Shown here piece by piece: positions 41,380 to 47,800 of a DNA stretch of 64,000 bases. Under the pieces are notes generated by a model, which did not search any database, was not told where the DNA came from, and saw nothing but the letters and a program-made list of their open reading frames with translations. The stretch's first letter is position 1. Each line of letters starts with the position of its first letter. The stretch is from a bacterium. GTDB lineage: Bacteria > Patescibacteriota > Patescibacteriia > 2-12-FULL-60-25. The translations under genes and the position numbers were made by a program. Where the stretch lies: the NCBI GenBank assembly GCA_021796435.1, contig JAJYXM010000016.1, forward strand, positions 750,625 through 814,624, written 5' to 3'.

Positions 41380-41408
41380 TTGACCAGGATGTATGCCGAT
41401 GGTATATG
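41380..41408 (+). promoter_or_regulatory. Promoter of the DUF84/YjjX gene
   Basis: TTGACC (41380-41385), 17-base spacer, TATATG (41403-41408). Confidence 0.65.
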
Positions 41409-41436
41409 TGTTAGGCACTTTTTCGGGGAGGTCGGG

Positions 41437-41946
41437 ATGAGGATAGCAGTAGGATCAACAAGCAGACACAAAAAGGTCGCAGTACAGAAGGCCTGCAGTA
41501 TGATGGGCTGGAATTCTGTCGAGATCATCCAATACGAGGCCGAGTCCGCCATCTCTCGGCAGCCCGTCGAGCTGAATTGGATCATGGCCGGTGCTCGCAA
41601 CCGGGCCCTCCTGACATCCGAAGCCGTTCCCGACACCCCTTGCGTCGGGATCGAGAACGGCATCATGCGCTCCTGGAACGTCCATCTGGACGTCGCTGTA
41701 ATCGTAGTCGTCATGCCGAATGGGGAATGGCATTTTGGTTCTTCGCCCGGTATCCAGATACCTGAACATGTGGTGAAGAAGGCGCAGGAACGCGGATTCG
41801 ACACCACGACCATGGGCGATATCTTGGCGGAGCAGAAATCATGCGACCCCGCGGATCCGCACCTTACCCTGACCGGGGGATTGCTATCCCGTTCAGACTT
41901 GCTCGCCCAAGGCATCTACGCCGTGTTCACCCAGATCAACTGGTGA
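41437..41946 (+). CDS. Inosine/xanthosine triphosphatase-like protein (DUF84/YjjX)
   Basis: The start at 41437 (MRIAVGSTSRHKKVAVQKAC) has GGGGAGG just upstream. The N-terminal VGSTSRHKKVAVQ and the central VGIENGIM are the nucleotide-binding signatures of the DUF84 family, which hydrolyses noncanonical purine nucleotides such as ITP and XTP. The 169 residues fit the family. The C-terminal DPHLTLTGGLLSRSDLLAQGI is also typical. Confidence 0.85.
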   Translation: MRIAVGSTSRHKKVAVQKACSMMGWNSVEIIQYEAESAISRQPVELNWIMAGARNRALLTSEAVPDTPCVGIENGIMRSWNVHLDVAVIVVVMPNGEWHFGSSPGIQIPEHVVKKAQERGFDTTTMGDILAEQKSCDPADPHLTLTGGLLSRSDLLAQGIYAVFTQINW

Positions 41947-43253: not shown

Positions 43254-43955
43254 TCAGTGCTTGCGCGGCGTTGCCTCGGGGAAGGCAGGGCGGAATTCGG
43301 TCCAAGGTTCGTGCGTCCCGATGACCGAAACGCCGGAGAGCACCAGGCTGTCATGCCCCAGGATGGTCGCAGGATTCAGCACAGCGTTGCAGCCGATGCG
43401 TGAGCGATCGCCGACAAGCGCACCGAACTTGCGGAGCCCGGTATCATACCTGACGCAGCCGAGGCTATCCGGCTCCCAAGTGACGTGGATCGTCTTGCGC
43501 TTGCTGCCGTCGCCCAGCAGGTTGGCGACGCAGCTGCCGTTGCCGAAGTTCACGTCGCGTCCGACGACCGAGTCGCCGACGTAGTTGCGGTGCGCCAGGT
43601 GCGCTCCGGGGAAGAGGATGGAGCGCTTCACCTCGGAGCAGTGACCGACCACGTTCTTGCCCATCAAGAGGCAACCTTCGCGCAACAAGGCGTTGTGCCC
43701 GATGACGCTTCCGTCGCCGATGTAGGCCGGACCGTAGATAACGGCGCCTGAACGGATCGTGACCTCGCGACCGACGTAGATCGGACCTGACGCACAGATG
43801 AGCTTCGCCTCCGTGTGTACAGCGTTCGTGTTCCGCGCCTTCAGGCTCCCGTAGAGGTATTCTTCAAGCGCTTTGATCCATTCCCACGGGTAGTCGAAGC
43901 GGGAAAACAGCGTTTCATGCCCGAGCCCTTGCAGCTGAAAGATCTGTCCCAGCAT
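43254..43955 (-). CDS. Left-handed beta-helix (hexapeptide repeat) protein
   Basis: Residues about 50-210 are hexapeptide repeats ([LIV]-G-x-x-x-x) in tandem: YVGREVTIRSGAVIYGPAYIGDGSVIGHNALLREGCLL, then GDSVVGRDVNFGNGS, and later VGDRSRIGCNAVLNPATILGHDS. The layout resembles the C-terminal acyltransferase-like part of sugar-nucleotide enzymes (GlmU, glucose-1-phosphate thymidylyltransferase type) without the nucleotidyltransferase domain. Its substrate is unknown. GAGGAAG precedes the ATG. Confidence 0.85.
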   Translation of the reverse strand: MLGQIFQLQGLGHETLFSRFDYPWEWIKALEEYLYGSLKARNTNAVHTEAKLICASGPIYVGREVTIRSGAVIYGPAYIGDGSVIGHNALLREGCLLMGKNVVGHCSEVKRSILFPGAHLAHRNYVGDSVVGRDVNFGNGSCVANLLGDGSKRKTIHVTWEPDSLGCVRYDTGLRKFGALVGDRSRIGCNAVLNPATILGHDSLVLSGVSVIGTHEPWTEFRPAFPEATPRKH

Positions 43956-44032
43956 TTCTTCCTCGCAATCAGGTTAGAGACGAGGAAACTTAAACATCTA
44001 TCGTGGAAATAATCAACCGCACAAAAACAGAA

Positions 44033-44057
44033 CCGCTCCGACAGAATGCCGGAGCGG
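44033..44057 (-). terminator. Terminator of the HD/Fic-like/P-loop operon
   Basis: CCGCTCCG (44033-44040) / CGGAGCGG (44050-44057). On the minus strand it is followed by TTCTGTTTTTG. Confidence 0.75.
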
Positions 44058-44064
44058 GGGAGGA

Positions 44065-44652
44065 TCAACCTGCCATGTACGCATCGACGATGCTCCTTCC
44101 GAGCAGTCCTATGCCGGCCAGGTCGGGGCTCGGTTGACGCACGAGGTCGTGGACGACCAACGCACGGTGACAATTGAGCACGGACGGGACCGGATTGCCG
44201 TCGAGCACCGAAGCTACGCCAAAGAGCAATCGGACGCCGGCTCGCGAGAAACTCGCGTGCCAAGCGTCGTATTCGTCGAAGGAACGACCGACGTAGATCG
44301 CATGCGTGCCGGAGGCCATGAAACGCGGCATGCCCGGATTAGCGAGACGACCGGGCAGGTCACCGATGACGATAGCCGAGGAGTCCTTACGGAACATCAT
44401 GTCGGCATAGACGATGACCTCGAAAGGCGCTTCCTGCGGGAAAGGCCAACGCTTGCAGCGTTTTGACCAAGCCTTCAATCCCATCAGCGGCCCGTGGGTG
44501 TCGCTGTGCACGTCAAGCTCGTGGAGCGCGACGGAGACGTACGGCTCGTGTTGCCGCAACCAGTAGTAGAGCGAGACGGCCAAGGTGGACTTGCCGCTCG
44601 CGTTAGGGCCTCCGATCAGGAGGCGCATCTGCGGACGAGCAGCGTCGTTCAC
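44065..44652 (-). CDS. P-loop NTPase (AAA/kinase-like)
   Basis: A 195-residue protein with Walker A GGPNASGKST at 14-23. The rest is compact: VSVALHELDVHSDTHGPL, EVIVYADMMFRKDSSAIVIGDLPGRLANPG (Walker B-like), and GTHAIYVGRSFDEYDAWHASF. The GxNGxGKST-type loop with an N before GKS is seen in zeta-toxin-like and small-molecule kinases as well as ATPases, so the activity is open. It is the last gene of a three-gene operon, one base after the Fic-like gene. Confidence 0.8.
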   Translation of the reverse strand: MNDAARPQMRLLIGGPNASGKSTLAVSLYYWLRQHEPYVSVALHELDVHSDTHGPLMGLKAWSKRCKRWPFPQEAPFEVIVYADMMFRKDSSAIVIGDLPGRLANPGMPRFMASGTHAIYVGRSFDEYDAWHASFSRAGVRLLFGVASVLDGNPVPSVLNCHRALVVHDLVRQPSPDLAGIGLLGRSIVDAYMAG

Positions 44653-44653
44653 T

Positions 44654-45319
44654 TCAACCTCCGGGGAAACAGGTGCGGTAGTAGGCGAGGAAGCTCTCCC
44701 AGCTTTCGTTCATGGCCGCGTAGTAAGCGGTCCGATCGCGATAGTAGGGCAGCGGCGCGTCGTTCCAAAGCAGGGTCCAGGCAGAGAAGGCGCGCGCCAT
44801 GCGACCGCAGGCGTCGGGGTAGGGATGGATCCGCATGTCGATCTCGTACTCGACCCAGGCCGCCAGTCCGATCGCATCATAATGGCGCAGTCGGAAGGCC
44901 CCAGCCGGTTCGGCAAGCTTGACCAGAAAACCGGGGTTTGGCTTCGTGGCGTGCATCGCCTTAAAGATTTTTTCCGGCGGCAGACCGTAGTTGCGGCCAG
45001 TCGGGAATTTACGATACCTCGTTTCAGGCGTGTAGGTAGCCAATGTACCCATCGTCAACGCCTCGTAGAAAAGCTTCTCGAGTCGAATTAGCGTTAAGAT
45101 CTGGTTGGCATTCCTGTCAGCGCCTTCGGTCGAAGCCACCAGGATCCCACTGACTACGGCTGTACTCAAGACGACAGCCTGTTTGAGCCCTTCGGACGTA
45201 AGAAGCCTTGCCGGCTTGCCTTCGCGGCCCTTGGCGTTGAGTTCGCCAGTCTGCGCCGTACGGCTCATCACGAGCGTGTTGGCTAGCAGTTTTTCAAGGA
45301 TCAGATCTTGTGTCAGCAT
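44654..45319 (-). CDS. Fic/DOC-like protein with degenerate motif
   Basis: The start is set at 45319 (MLTQDLILEKLLANTLVMSR), with GAGAGGCCG before the ATG. Helical, 221 residues. Residues 165-173, HPYPDACGR, follow the Fic motif HPFx(D/E)(G/A)N(G/K)R, but the Asn that binds nucleotide phosphate is Cys171. His165, Asp169 and Arg173 are kept. The upstream helix and the AFSAWTLL after it fit the Fic core. It may transfer AMP, phosphate or another group to a target, or have lost activity. It overlaps the HD gene by 26 bases. Confidence 0.7.
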   Translation of the reverse strand: MLTQDLILEKLLANTLVMSRTAQTGELNAKGREGKPARLLTSEGLKQAVVLSTAVVSGILVASTEGADRNANQILTLIRLEKLFYEALTMGTLATYTPETRYRKFPTGRNYGLPPEKIFKAMHATKPNPGFLVKLAEPAGAFRLRHYDAIGLAAWVEYEIDMRIHPYPDACGRMARAFSAWTLLWNDAPLPYYRDRTAYYAAMNESWESFLAYYRTCFPGG

Positions 45320-45869
45320 CGGCCTCTCCTGTGGCATCCGTGACAGCTGCTTGGAGCAGCTTGGCTAGTTGCTGGTCCAAAGTGTAGGCAAGAGGCAAGA
45401 AAAACTCAATCGTGACGTCAGAATAACGCTTTACAAAATCCGGCATTACTGCTTTCAGCGGAATGGACGAACGGACGTTATCTAAGCGATCCACGAGCTT
45501 AAGCAGCTTGGCCTTGTCGGATGACCTTGAGATCTTCTGGAGAAATAGGGGGTCATCGATCTTCTCGACCGGGGAAGTGAGCTCTTCGACGAGAGATGCG
45601 ACTGTTGCGTTAGAAATGTGTTCAATGTCTTCAGCTGTCACTGGCTGGTCTTCGATGGAATCATGGAGAAGGATGGCTTCAAGCATGTCTGGATCCTGAC
45701 CGCCGATTTCATCCCGCAAAATCAAGAAGCAACGATAAAGATGGGCGAGTTGGGTATCGTCGCCAAAACGCTTCTGCTCGGCGTGGATTTTTTGTGCGTA
45801 GCCTAAAACGCGGCGCGTCCTATCAGGCAGGCTAACAATGACTTGAGAGATAAGTTCTTTTTCCGTCAT
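45294..45869 (-). CDS. SpoT/MESH1-like HD phosphohydrolase
   Basis: A 191-residue HD-domain protein. The metal and catalytic residues of the RelA/SpoT hydrolase fold are visible: His43 (AHLYR), the pair His69-Asp70 with Glu73-Asp74 (LLHDSIED), and KLVDRLDNVR (Asp127), which mirrors the KLADRLHNMR motif of (p)ppGpp hydrolases. There is no synthetase domain. A role in removing (p)ppGpp or a related pyrophosphorylated nucleotide is inferred. It is the first gene of the operon with the Fic-like and P-loop genes. Confidence 0.82.
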   Translation of the reverse strand: MTEKELISQVIVSLPDRTRRVLGYAQKIHAEQKRFGDDTQLAHLYRCFLILRDEIGGQDPDMLEAILLHDSIEDQPVTAEDIEHISNATVASLVEELTSPVEKIDDPLFLQKISRSSDKAKLLKLVDRLDNVRSSIPLKAVMPDFVKRYSDVTIEFFLPLAYTLDQQLAKLLQAAVTDATGEADADTRSDP

Positions 45870-45899
45870 GCCGTCAGTTTATTCCAGCATCTAGCTCCT

Positions 45900-45962
45900 G
45901 TCATCCCGGGCTTGACCCGGGATCTCGGGGCCTAGAGATCCCGGCTCGTAAGCCGGGATGAC
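45900..45962. repeat. Palindromic repeat copy 3 (GTCATCCCGG family)
   Basis: GTCATCCCGGGCTTGACCCG...CCCGGCTCGTAAGCCGGGATGAC. It lies between the start of the HD gene and the stop of the ABC-F gene, both on the minus strand. Confidence 0.9.
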
Positions 45963-45997
45963 ATAGGAATAGAATGGAGAGTCGGGATTTATAAAAA

Positions 45998-47800
45998 TCA
46001 CTCCTCTTTGGCTGTCTTGAGTTCCTGGCCTAACGCGTCAATCTTATCCTGCATATCGAACCAAGAGGCTTCGCGGCTTATAAGCTCGGCATCGAGCTCC
46101 TTGAGACGTTTGGCTTTCTCGATATCGATGACCGCTGGGTTATCGACGTAGAACTTGAGGATGCGATTCTTCTCTTTGGTCAGTTTTTCTACCTCTGTCT
46201 CCAACCTTTCTTGCGCACGCTTCTGTTTTTGTTGATCTTGATAGACTTCTGACTTAGTGCGGAGATAGGGGACTTCACCTTCGGTCACGGACGAATCATC
46301 CACCATCTCGACTTTCTCATGCGTCTTCAGCTCGTAAACGTAGATGTCGTAAGGATACGGATAGCGGACGGCTCGGCCGTCTTTGATCTCAAGGATGTTG
46401 GTCGCGATCTGCGACGCGAAAGTCCGGCTATGGCTCACGAAGATGACCGTGCCCGGGAATTCGGACAGAGCCTCGCCCAAAGCCTCTACCGTGTCGAAGT
46501 CCAGATGGTTAGTCGGCTCGTCCAAGATGAGAACGTCATATTTACCGAGGCAGATGGAGGCCAGGCAGAGCCGCGCCTTCTCGCCGCCAGACAGAATGGA
46601 AATCGGCTTATCCAGATCGTCCTGCTTGAACAAAAAATTGCTTGCCATGCGCAGCAGGTCTTCGGGCAGCGCAGACGGCGCGATGAATGAGAGGTAATTC
46701 CCGGCCGTGCCTTCTTGCGGCAGCATCTGCGGCACATGTTGGGCGTAGTAGGCGACGCGCAGGTTGTGGCCCCATTTGAATTTGCCATCCAAGATAGGCA
46801 GTTCACCGGCCAAAGTCTTCAGGAGCGTCGACTTGCCTTGTCCGTTCTCGCCGAGCACAGCCAGATGCTCCCCGCGGTTCAGCTCGAAATCTATATGGGA
46901 AAGTACAGGCCTGCCTGCGACATAACCGACGCTCAAATCCTGACACTCAAGCGCCACAGCCTTGCGTTGTTCGTCACACGGTATGTGGATACGCACCGTA
47001 CGGAGCGAGTGTGCGATCTCGATAGTCTTAAGCTTTTCGAGTTGTTTGAGCTTGGACTGCGCCTGCGTGGCCTTTGAGGCTTTGGCGCGGAAGCGATCCA
47101 CGAATTCCTTAAGATGTCGCTGTTGCGCCTGGATCTTCTTGTTATGGCGGCGCACTTCCTCGAGCCTGATCTCCTTATGTTCAAAATACAATTCTATGTC
47201 GCCAGGAAACAAGGAAAGCTTCTGATGTTCGAGCTCCAAAGTATGCGTACATACGTTCTTGAGGAATTCGCGGTCGTGAGAGACCAACAGCAGCGCTCCG
47301 CGATATTGCCGCAACGCGTCCTCCAAGAGCAGGACCGTCTGTAGATCGAGATAGTTGGTCGGCTCGTCGAGCAAGAGAAGATTCGGTTCTTTGACCAACA
47401 AGCTCGCGAGGCGCACGCGCATCTGGTAGCCGCCGGAGAGCGAAAGGAAAGGCATCTCGAGCTTTTCGTTCTTGAGCTCGAAAGCCGATGCCATCTTGGC
47501 GCATTCCCAAGATTCGCGACCTGACGTGCGCGTCAGATAGTCGATGACAGTCTCGCCGGGCGGATATTCCTCTTGTTGCTCCAGATAACCCAGGCGGGTG
47601 TAGGGGTAGATGGTGATCTCGCCGGTGTCGGGCGATTCCTGACCCAGGATCATGCGGAGCAATGTCGTCTTGCCCGAGCCGTTAGCGCCGATGAATCCGA
47701 CTTTCTGGCCTTCGCAGATGGAAACCGTGGCGGAATCAAGCAACAATCGCGTGCCGAACGATTTGGTGACGTCTTTGAGTTGTAGGACTGTCGTGGCCAT
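45998..47800 (-). CDS. ABC-F family ATPase (Uup-like)
   Basis: Two ATP-binding domains without membrane parts: first Walker A GANGSGKT (38-45) with signature LSLSGGYQMRVRLA and LLLDEPTNYLDL, second Walker A GENGQGKST with LSGGEKARLCLASI and LILDEPTNHLDFDT. Between them lies the charged linker (HNKKIQAQQRHLKEFVDRFRAKASKATQAQSKLKQLEK), and at the C-terminus an antiparallel coiled coil (QQKQKRAQERLETEVEKLTKEKN... ELDAEL). ABC-F proteins act at the ribosome to regulate or rescue translation. At 600 residues it is full length. Confidence 0.93.
   Translation of the reverse strand: MATTVLQLKDVTKSFGTRLLLDSATVSICEGQKVGFIGANGSGKTTLLRMILGQESPDTGEITIYPYTRLGYLEQQEEYPPGETVIDYLTRTSGRESWECAKMASAFELKNEKLEMPFLSLSGGYQMRVRLASLLVKEPNLLLLDEPTNYLDLQTVLLLEDALRQYRGALLLVSHDREFLKNVCTHTLELEHQKLSLFPGDIELYFEHKEIRLEEVRRHNKKIQAQQRHLKEFVDRFRAKASKATQAQSKLKQLEKLKTIEIAHSLRTVRIHIPCDEQRKAVALECQDLSVGYVAGRPVLSHIDFELNRGEHLAVLGENGQGKSTLLKTLAGELPILDGKFKWGHNLRVAYYAQHVPQMLPQEGTAGNYLSFIAPSALPEDLLRMASNFLFKQDDLDKPISILSGGEKARLCLASICLGKYDVLILDEPTNHLDFDTVEALGEALSEFPGTVIFVSHSRTFASQIATNILEIKDGRAVRYPYPYDIYVYELKTHEKVEMVDDSSVTEGEVPYLRTKSEVYQDQQKQKRAQERLETEVEKLTKEKNRILKFYVDNPAVIDIEKAKRLKELDAELISREASWFDMQDKIDALGQELKTAKEE

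What the first reader, a model, noticed from the sequence alone, without database searches (positions are those of the whole stretch)
44065..45869. Operon of a SpoT/MESH1-like hydrolase, a Fic-like protein and a P-loop protein
The HD protein keeps the (p)ppGpp-hydrolase residues (His43, His69-Asp70, Asp127). The Fic-like protein keeps HPYPDACGR but with Cys in place of the phosphate-binding Asn. The P-loop protein looks like a small kinase or ATPase. The genes overlap or touch and end in one terminator. A nucleotide-modifying pathway, a toxin-antidote set or a defence unit are all possible. I know of no named system with this trio.
Basis: partly seen in the sequence, partly recalled or inferred. 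Interest (0 to 1): 0.68.

Follow-up and report, generated by a model that had tools for sequence, protein, structure and literature searches.

The report
Altered Fic enzyme with HD partner
A small gene cassette in ultra-small bacteria pairs an altered protein-modifying (Fic) enzyme, which has lost its built-in brake, with an enzyme that looks able to cut nucleotides or phosphates and with a nucleotide-binding partner; it may be a new kind of write-and-erase or toxin-antidote module.

Summary
The trio is real. Its core recurs in distant relatives at about 25% identity. Profile searches in candidate-phylum (Uhrbacteria-like) genomes found 10 members of one variant Fic clade (support 100/97). The signature Asn is Cys in 8 of 10 and Thr or Ser in 2. 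None of the 10 keeps the inhibitory/deAMPylation Glu, and only 2 of 10 keep the second Arg. A MESH1-like HD gene lies beside the variant Fic in 6 of 10 genomes, against 0 of 53 ordinary Fic genes. In the class sample that HD subfamily was found only in genomes with the variant Fic. The P-loop protein has a SIMIBI fold and resembles the NTPase domain of Csx3'. It is adjacent or fused to the Fic in 4 genomes. In the window genome the trio sits as a ~1.9 kb insert between genes that are neighbours in two congeners. Best reading: the Fic, unable to reverse its own reaction, writes a modification and the HD enzyme, in trans, erases it or its product; the NTPase is partner, sensor or target. Chemistry and substrate are untested. 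No description of such a module was found in the papers searched.

The parts
45294..45869 (-). MESH1/small-alarmone-hydrolase-like HD protein (191 aa)
   Evidence: Pfam HD_4 2.4e-10; PDB MESH1 CG11900 2.9e-11 alone, 5.4e-18 with 6-row profile; catalytic residues invariant in 6 of 6 aligned members
45648..45665 (-). HD active-site motif H69-D70..E73-D74
   Evidence: invariant columns in A10
44654..45337 (-). variant Fic protein (227 aa; second possible start at 45319)
   Evidence: A9 profile to FICD 1.9e-10; AF2 model vs FICD Foldseek 1.4e-4, VIA Z 13.3 over 179 residues, rmsd 3.7
44792..44827 (-). altered Fic motif HPYPDACGRMAR (Cys177 for Asn; R179 and R182 kept)
45245..45265 (-). remnant of the inhibitory-helix motif, SRTAQTG, without the Glu
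   Evidence: alignment and spacing of 146 residues to the Fic His; ordinary class II Fic have SxxIEG at 129-152 residues
44065..44652 (-). SIMIBI-type P-loop NTPase, Csx3'-kinase-domain-like (195 aa)
   Evidence: PADLOC Csx3 5.3e-8, Csx3-AAA 2.3e-6; fold MinD Z 16.5
44584..44613 (-). Walker A GGPNASGKST
   Evidence: aligned
44350..44364 (-). GDLPG motif (G97, D98, P100, G101 invariant in 4 members)
44033..44057 (-). terminator-like hairpin and T-run
   Evidence: not above shuffle expectation by count
45876..45904 (-). weak promoter-like site upstream of the HD gene
   Evidence: 1 found, 0.8 expected
43956..45997 (.). cassette region absent from two congeners, between the ABC-F gene (45998-47800) and the hexapeptide gene (43254-43955)

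Best explanation
A writer-eraser (or toxin-antidote) module. The Fic protein descends from class II Fic transferases but has lost the inhibitory/deAMPylation Glu, so it should be neither self-inhibited nor able to reverse its own reaction; its nucleotide site is also changed (Asn to Cys, and in most members the gamma-phosphate Arg lost), so the donor or transferred group probably differs from plain ATP-AMPylation. The HD phosphohydrolase supplies the missing reverse activity in trans: it removes the modification, or hydrolyses the nucleotide product, much as the HD domain of GlnD removes UMP from PII and as small alarmone hydrolases neutralise toxSAS toxins. The SIMIBI NTPase, which can be fused to the Fic, is its partner: target, switch or supplier of nucleotide. 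Shown: gene linkage, folds, residue losses, the supported variant Fic clade, and the subfamily-level match of the HDs. Inferred: that the Fic is active, what it transfers, that the HD reverses it, and the role of the NTPase.
For: (1) HD adjacent to the variant Fic in 6 of 10 genomes; 0 of 53 distinct ordinary Fic ORFs have one in the flank held (Fisher 3e-6, rows not phylogenetically independent). Members were found by Fic search, so HD adjacency was not selected for, the window aside (5 of 9 others). (2) A system-type HD (>180 bits) occurs in 5 of 380 class genomes, all with the variant Fic; one of them (G265, 215.8 bits, another contig) was not in the model; next best 85 bits. (3) Among the eight Cys-Fic genomes the one without that HD (G255) also has His to Arg in the Fic motif. 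(4) The (S/T)xxxE(G/N) motif is kept as a Ser...Gly remnant without Glu in 10 of 10, against the full motif in 37 of 53 ordinary Fic; R2 kept in 2 of 10 against 53 of 53. Literature passages: inhibitory Glu competes with the gamma-phosphate for R2 and Asn contacts the alpha-phosphate (PMC3667792); the Glu is needed for deAMPylation (PMC6408439; PMC13327609); the GlnD HD domain removes UMP (PMC4285133); a small alarmone hydrolase neutralises toxSAS products (PMC11782079). (5) P-loop with Fic: of 4 strong P-loop-positive genomes in 285 class genomes, all 4 have it beside or fused to the variant Fic, 2 of them not in the model.
Against: No biochemistry. Loss of Asn, Glu and (mostly) R2 could equally mean a dead or repurposed Fic fold. 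4 of 10 members lack an adjacent HD and 3 of 10 (G255, G268, G382) had no system-type HD at all in the class search. The window HD does not group firmly with the other six (all seven together 44/12; those six 98/97), so it could be a separate recruitment. The MESH1-type HD is known for 3'-pyrophosphate or phosphate removal from nucleotides (recalled), not for NMP-protein cleavage. The P-loop partner is not constant: Csx3'-like in 4, a zeta/AAA_33 fusion in 1, an APH-type kinase in 2 (sisters), a frameshifted AAA-Csx3 near 1, none seen in 2. The Cys/HD association is weak by number (7 of 8 against 0 of 2, p 0.07).
Confidence: 0.38

Rival explanations
1. Nucleotide-level module: the HD hydrolyses an alarmone-like or phosphorylated nucleotide, the NTPase/kinase makes or senses it, and the Fic fold acts on or is controlled by that small molecule; no protein is modified.
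For: HD keeps every MESH1/RSH hydrolase residue and hits MESH1 5.4e-18; NTPase kin are fused to the cA4 ring nuclease Csx3 (PMC7371418), and in G664 an AAA-Csx3 gene stands downstream of Fic-HD; R2 loss points to a donor other than an ordinary NTP.
Against: The flap/target-dock segment (R-x-R..PP) seems retained in the FICD alignment, which speaks for a protein target; no synthetase domain beside the genes; Csx3 found in 1 of 10 genomes only.
Confidence: 0.27
2. Anti-phage or other conflict system (abortive infection): the Fic is the toxin, the HD its enzymatic antidote, the NTPase the sensor.
For: Patchy distribution and empty site in two congeners; SoFic is a Fic defence toxin with a small antitoxin gene (PMC12249575); P-loop resembles PADLOC Csx3-AAA models.
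Against: PADLOC Fic match is not significant for the window protein (0.037); no relative of the Fic in the phage and plasmid collections or in three viral-contig scans; neighbours are housekeeping-like genes.
Confidence: 0.2
3. The Fic is a pseudoenzyme: a binding scaffold or inhibitor for the HD and NTPase, which are the active parts.
For: Asn, Glu and R2 altered; one member (G255) has His to Arg.
Against: His is kept in 9 of 10, Asp in 10 of 10, the first Arg in 9 of 10 with Lys in one; the replacement of Asn is always Cys, Ser or Thr rather than random.
Confidence: 0.15

Closest known systems
Class II Fic proteins, especially FICD/HYPE
   Same: Fic fold, N-terminal helix position, His/Asp/first Arg, flap-like R-x-R..PP segment; best profile and structure match
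   Different: no inhibitory/deAMPylation Glu in any member; Asn replaced by Cys/Thr/Ser; second Arg lost in 8 of 10 (window keeps it); paired with an HD enzyme
MESH1 / small alarmone hydrolases (HD_4)
   Same: single HD domain with all catalytic residues
   Different: forms (six of seven) its own supported clade linked to Fic; substrate unknown
toxSAS toxin with SAH antitoxin
   Same: logic: HD hydrolase encoded beside a nucleotide-using enzyme
   Different: no alarmone-synthetase domain; Fic fold instead
GlnD uridylyltransferase/uridylyl-removing enzyme
   Same: logic: nucleotidyltransferase plus HD eraser
   Different: separate genes, different transferase fold
[quoted passage not shown]
   Same: the P-loop domain family (PADLOC 5e-8)
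   Different: no Csx3 domain in the window; context is Fic-HD, not type III CRISPR
FicTA class I (VbhT-VbhA, Fic-1-AntF) and SoFic-AS1
   Same: Fic with a partner gene that limits or reverses it
   Different: those partners are small proteins (for VbhA and AntF carrying the inhibitory Glu), here an HD enzyme

Membership tests
Fic/Fido superfamily | Fic fold | tested here: met
   AF2 pLDDT 68.5, pTM 0.72; Foldseek FICD E 1.4e-4, prob 1.00; VIA Z 13.3
Fic/Fido superfamily | Pfam PF02661 gathering score | tested here: not met
   16.5 of 24 bits for the window protein; 24.7 bits (met) for member L093
AMPylating Fic (HxFx(D/E)GNGRxxR) | full signature motif | tested here: not met
   window HPYPDACGRMAR; Cys for Asn in 8 of 10, Thr/Ser in 2
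Class II Fic | N-terminal (S/T)xxxE(G/N) | tested here: not met
   Ser and Gly kept, Glu absent in 10 of 10
AMPylating Fic | AMP transfer to protein | not testable with these tools
   needs biochemistry
MESH1 / small alarmone hydrolase | HD_4 domain above cut-off with H, HD, ED, D, N residues | tested here: met
   40.8 bits against a cut-off of 27.2; residues invariant
MESH1 / small alarmone hydrolase | hydrolysis of (p)ppGpp or relatives | not testable with these tools
   needs biochemistry
toxSAS-SAH toxin-antitoxin | adjacent alarmone-synthetase domain | tested here: not met
   no RelA_SpoT synthetase match in the trio or the five scanned neighbours
Csx3' / Crn3 | Csx3 ring-nuclease domain | tested here: not met
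   window protein matches only the AAA part; PDLC01059 found in 1 of 10 member genomes, not in the window's
SIMIBI P-loop NTPases | SIMIBI fold with Walker A | tested here: met
   MinD Z 16.5 over 178 residues; low confidence at residues 50-73 and 153-162
Zeta-toxin-like kinases | zeta/AAA_33 profile match | tested here: not met
   not matched by the window protein; weak matches only in the G272 fusion

The most novel reading that the evidence does not exclude
A new enzyme-pair type: a Fic transferase whose phosphate-binding Asn has become a nucleophilic residue (Cys, Ser or Thr in 10 of 10), perhaps forming a covalent enzyme-phosphate or enzyme-nucleotide intermediate or using a non-ATP donor, with a separate HD-type eraser replacing the Glu-based self-reversal of ordinary Fic proteins, and a Csx3'-family NTPase as target or trigger. 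It would be the first Fic system undone by an HD phosphohydrolase (to the extent of the paper searches).
Probability: 0.22. Interest if true: 0.85.

Novelty: new variant of a known kind. Interest (0 to 1): 0.62.

Why it matters
Few enzymes are known that reverse Fic modifications; the known bacterial Fic reversal uses the Glu of the Fic itself or of its antitoxin. A Fic clade that has lost that Glu in every member seen and travels with an HD hydrolase makes the question of separate erasers directly testable, gives a possible natural role to stand-alone MESH1-like HD proteins beyond alarmones, and offers a context for the Csx3' NTPase domain, described in print as of unknown function (PMC7371418, passage seen). 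It would also be a regulatory or conflict module in ultra-small bacteria.

Tried and rejected
Considered and rejected or not followed: (a) chance neighbours, rejected by conservation; (b) ordinary FicTA, rejected because the Glu is absent; (c) toxSAS, no synthetase; (d) phage-borne unit: no relative of the Fic in phages, plasmids or three viral-contig scans; generic HD relatives are common in viral contigs but 0 of the 80 loci kept (of 143 confirmed) carry the Fic or P-loop by profile; (e) Csx3 as a general part: only G664, where the AAA-Csx3 reading frame is broken by a frameshift, left as it is; (f) a CYTH-like look of the N-terminal extension in G346, seen by eye, not supported by Pfam or PDB searches; (g) the weak P-loop hit in G258 (23 bits) was not counted as a member. 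A first genome-contig scan with the single window Fic found nothing; the second, with A4, gave 3 loci, all already known. The pattern-based scans and the class and phylum samples are not exhaustive, so the range outside Patescibacteria is unknown. Structural search of the viral library gave no match under 0.001. For the AF2 jobs only the window and the search for related loci rows were used (4 rows each), hence modest confidence. The HD was not folded. Controls are related sequences, so the p-values are descriptive. In the Fic tree one ordinary row without a readable motif was dropped (50 of 51 used). The regular expression required Asn; one search did not, and found Asn in 53 of 53. In one search the automatic choice of frame took a wrong frame for the G265 HD; it was replaced by the right one.

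Full report
What is there. On the minus strand of the window three genes run HD (45869-45294), Fic-like (45337-44654), P-loop (44652-44065), overlapping by 44 nt and spaced by 1 nt, followed by a hairpin plus T-run at 44057-44033. The window lies in a 1.6 Mb genome, G000; relatives with names include Candidatus Uhrbacteria. That the class is ABY1 (Patescibacteria) is my inference from that name, recalled, not from a call. No tRNA gene was found in the window.

The proteins. HD: Pfam HD_4 2.4e-10, MESH1 of Drosophila (CG11900) 2.9e-11. Fic-like: Pfam Fic only 0.016 alone; an AF2 model from four rows (pLDDT 68.5, pTM 0.72) matches FICD structures (Foldseek 1.4e-4; VIA Z 13.3, 179 residues, rmsd 3.7). 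P-loop: in Pfam only Walker-A-level hits, in PADLOC Csx3 5.3e-8 and Csx3-AAA 2.3e-6; the model (pLDDT 74.3) is of the MinD/ParA/Soj class (Z 16.5 to MinD). [quoted passage not shown]

Relatives. Single-sequence search of 96 genomes gave one other genome, G047, with both Fic and P-loop on one contig; reading that contig showed all three genes together at 23-28% identity, in another order: P-loop divergent from Fic-HD. Profile searches extended the Fic family: 8 members in a class sample of 380 genomes (E 5e-31 or better; the other 25 matching genomes start at 5.6e-10, with ordinary Fic where read) and G664 and G716 in a phylum sample of 379 (the other 27 matching genomes beside the window's start at 9.0e-10). 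Ten members in all. They form one clade against 50 ordinary Fic proteins (100/97; long branches inside).

Neighbourhoods. G000: HD, Fic, P-loop. G047: P-loop, divergent Fic, HD. G272: HD, then one 893-aa protein with an AAA_33/zeta-like P-loop and a C-terminal Cys-Fic. G346: extended Fic, HD. G664: Fic, HD, then downstream an AAA-Csx3 gene with a frameshift. G716: Fic, HD, contig end. G265: P-loop divergent from Fic; HD on another contig. G255: P-loop fused to Fic in one frame of 406 codons at a contig start. G268 and G382: an APH-type phosphotransferase (Pfam APH 1.9e-10 in G382; the G268 one by likeness), the Fic with Thr or Ser, then genes I recognise by eye as TsaD and TsaE; no HD. So HD is adjacent in 6 of 10; the Csx3'-like P-loop in 4 of 10.

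Controls. Of 53 distinct ordinary Fic ORFs brought in by the same searches, 0 have an HD match in the flank held (median about 1.1 kb each side), against 6 of 10. A 6-row HD profile over 380 class genomes finds a clear gap: 290, 287, 255, 216 and 185 bits in five genomes that all carry the variant Fic, then 85 bits; four of the five were in the model, G265 was not. Three variant-Fic genomes in that sample (G255, G268, G382) have no such HD. With the two-row P-loop profile, 4 of 285 class genomes have strong hits, all beside or fused to the variant Fic, two of them outside the model; a fifth genome, G258, has a weak one. A long RSH-like HD frame is present in 14 of 15 genomes checked (not seen in G265), so HD genes as such are common. 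Six of the seven Fic-associated HDs form a clade (98/97); the window HD is not placed with confidence (all seven together 44/12).

Residues. Across the ten Fic proteins: catalytic His in 9 (Arg in G255), Asp in 10, first Arg in 9 (Lys in G272), Asn position Cys in 8, Thr in G268, Ser in G382; second Arg only in G000 and G716. At 129-173 residues before the His stands a Ser...Gly remnant (SRTxxG, in some with one extra residue, SATxxTG in G268 and G382), where ordinary class II Fic here have SxxIEG mostly at 129-152; the Glu is missing in 10 of 10. Ordinary Fic: Asn 53 of 53, second Arg 53 of 53, (S/T)xxxE(G/N) in 37 of 53. By published work (passages seen) the Asn contacts the alpha-phosphate, the second Arg the gamma-phosphate, and the Glu competes with that phosphate for the second Arg (PMC3667792); the Glu is needed for deAMPylation in EfFIC and FICD (PMC6408439) and, supplied by the antitoxin AntF, for deAMPylation by Fic-1-AntF (abstract and passages, PMC13327609). 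Hence a Fic of this family should not brake or reverse itself by the known route. HD catalytic residues are invariant in the six aligned HDs.

Mechanism. I favour writer-eraser: the Fic modifies a protein, perhaps its NTPase partner, and the HD removes the group or breaks down the product. Precedents of logic are GlnD, whose HD domain is the uridylyl-removing part (PMC4285133, passages), and small alarmone hydrolases that neutralise toxSAS products (PMC11782079, passages). The one Cys-Fic genome without the HD has also lost the Fic His, which fits, but it is a single case in a draft genome. Against: the HD type is known for nucleotides, the Fic might be inactive, and partners vary. I give this reading 0.38.

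Mobility. In congeners G001 and G002 the flanking ABC-F and hexapeptide genes are adjacent with 0.2-0.3 kb between the matches, without the trio: an empty site for an insert of about 1.9 kb. Gain in G000 or loss in the others cannot be told apart. A palindromic repeat that also occurs elsewhere in the window lies beside the cassette.

Known or new. Full-text searches for Fic with MESH1, HD domain, alarmone hydrolase, toxSAS, deAMPylase, Patescibacteria, and for Csx3 with AAA/kinase listed no paper that I could recognise as describing a Fic-HD module; I saw passages of ten papers, no whole text, and the library lacks most subscription journals. Filed as a new variant of a known kind: a Fic system with an unusual, enzyme-type partner, not a member of class I-III FicTA or of toxSAS by the features tested.

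Noticed in passing
window 45897-45962: Palindromic repeat (arms around GACCCGGGATCTC/GAGATCCCGG) between the HD gene and the ABC-F gene; partial copies at about 15,900, 19,500 and 52,310 in the window and in G001 (L254): probably a dispersed repeat.
   Followed up: partly
G000 contig C1: about 912,000, 923,000, 1,117,000 and 1,468,500: The window's genome has four further HD_4 matches besides the one in the finding, one in a frame of 551 aa like full-length RSH.
   Followed up: partly
L029:3472-6153: 893-aa protein in G272 with a zeta/AAA_33-like P-loop and a C-terminal Cys-Fic domain (HFFADGCGK), preceded by a system-type HD.
   Followed up: partly
L095:4403-5650: AAA-Csx3 gene broken by a frameshift downstream of the Fic-HD pair in G664; the only Csx3-family match in ten member genomes.
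   Followed up: partly
L093:5252-8846 and L030:7276-8022 with neighbours: Thr/Ser variant Fic between an APH-type phosphotransferase and genes that look like TsaD/TsaE; no HD.
   Followed up: no
L094:5647-6150: N-terminal extension of the G346 Fic protein with no Pfam match and no significant PDB match; looked CYTH-like by eye.
   Followed up: partly
window 41380-41946 +: DUF84/NTPase_I-T protein (Pfam 2.7e-22) a few genes away.
   Followed up: no
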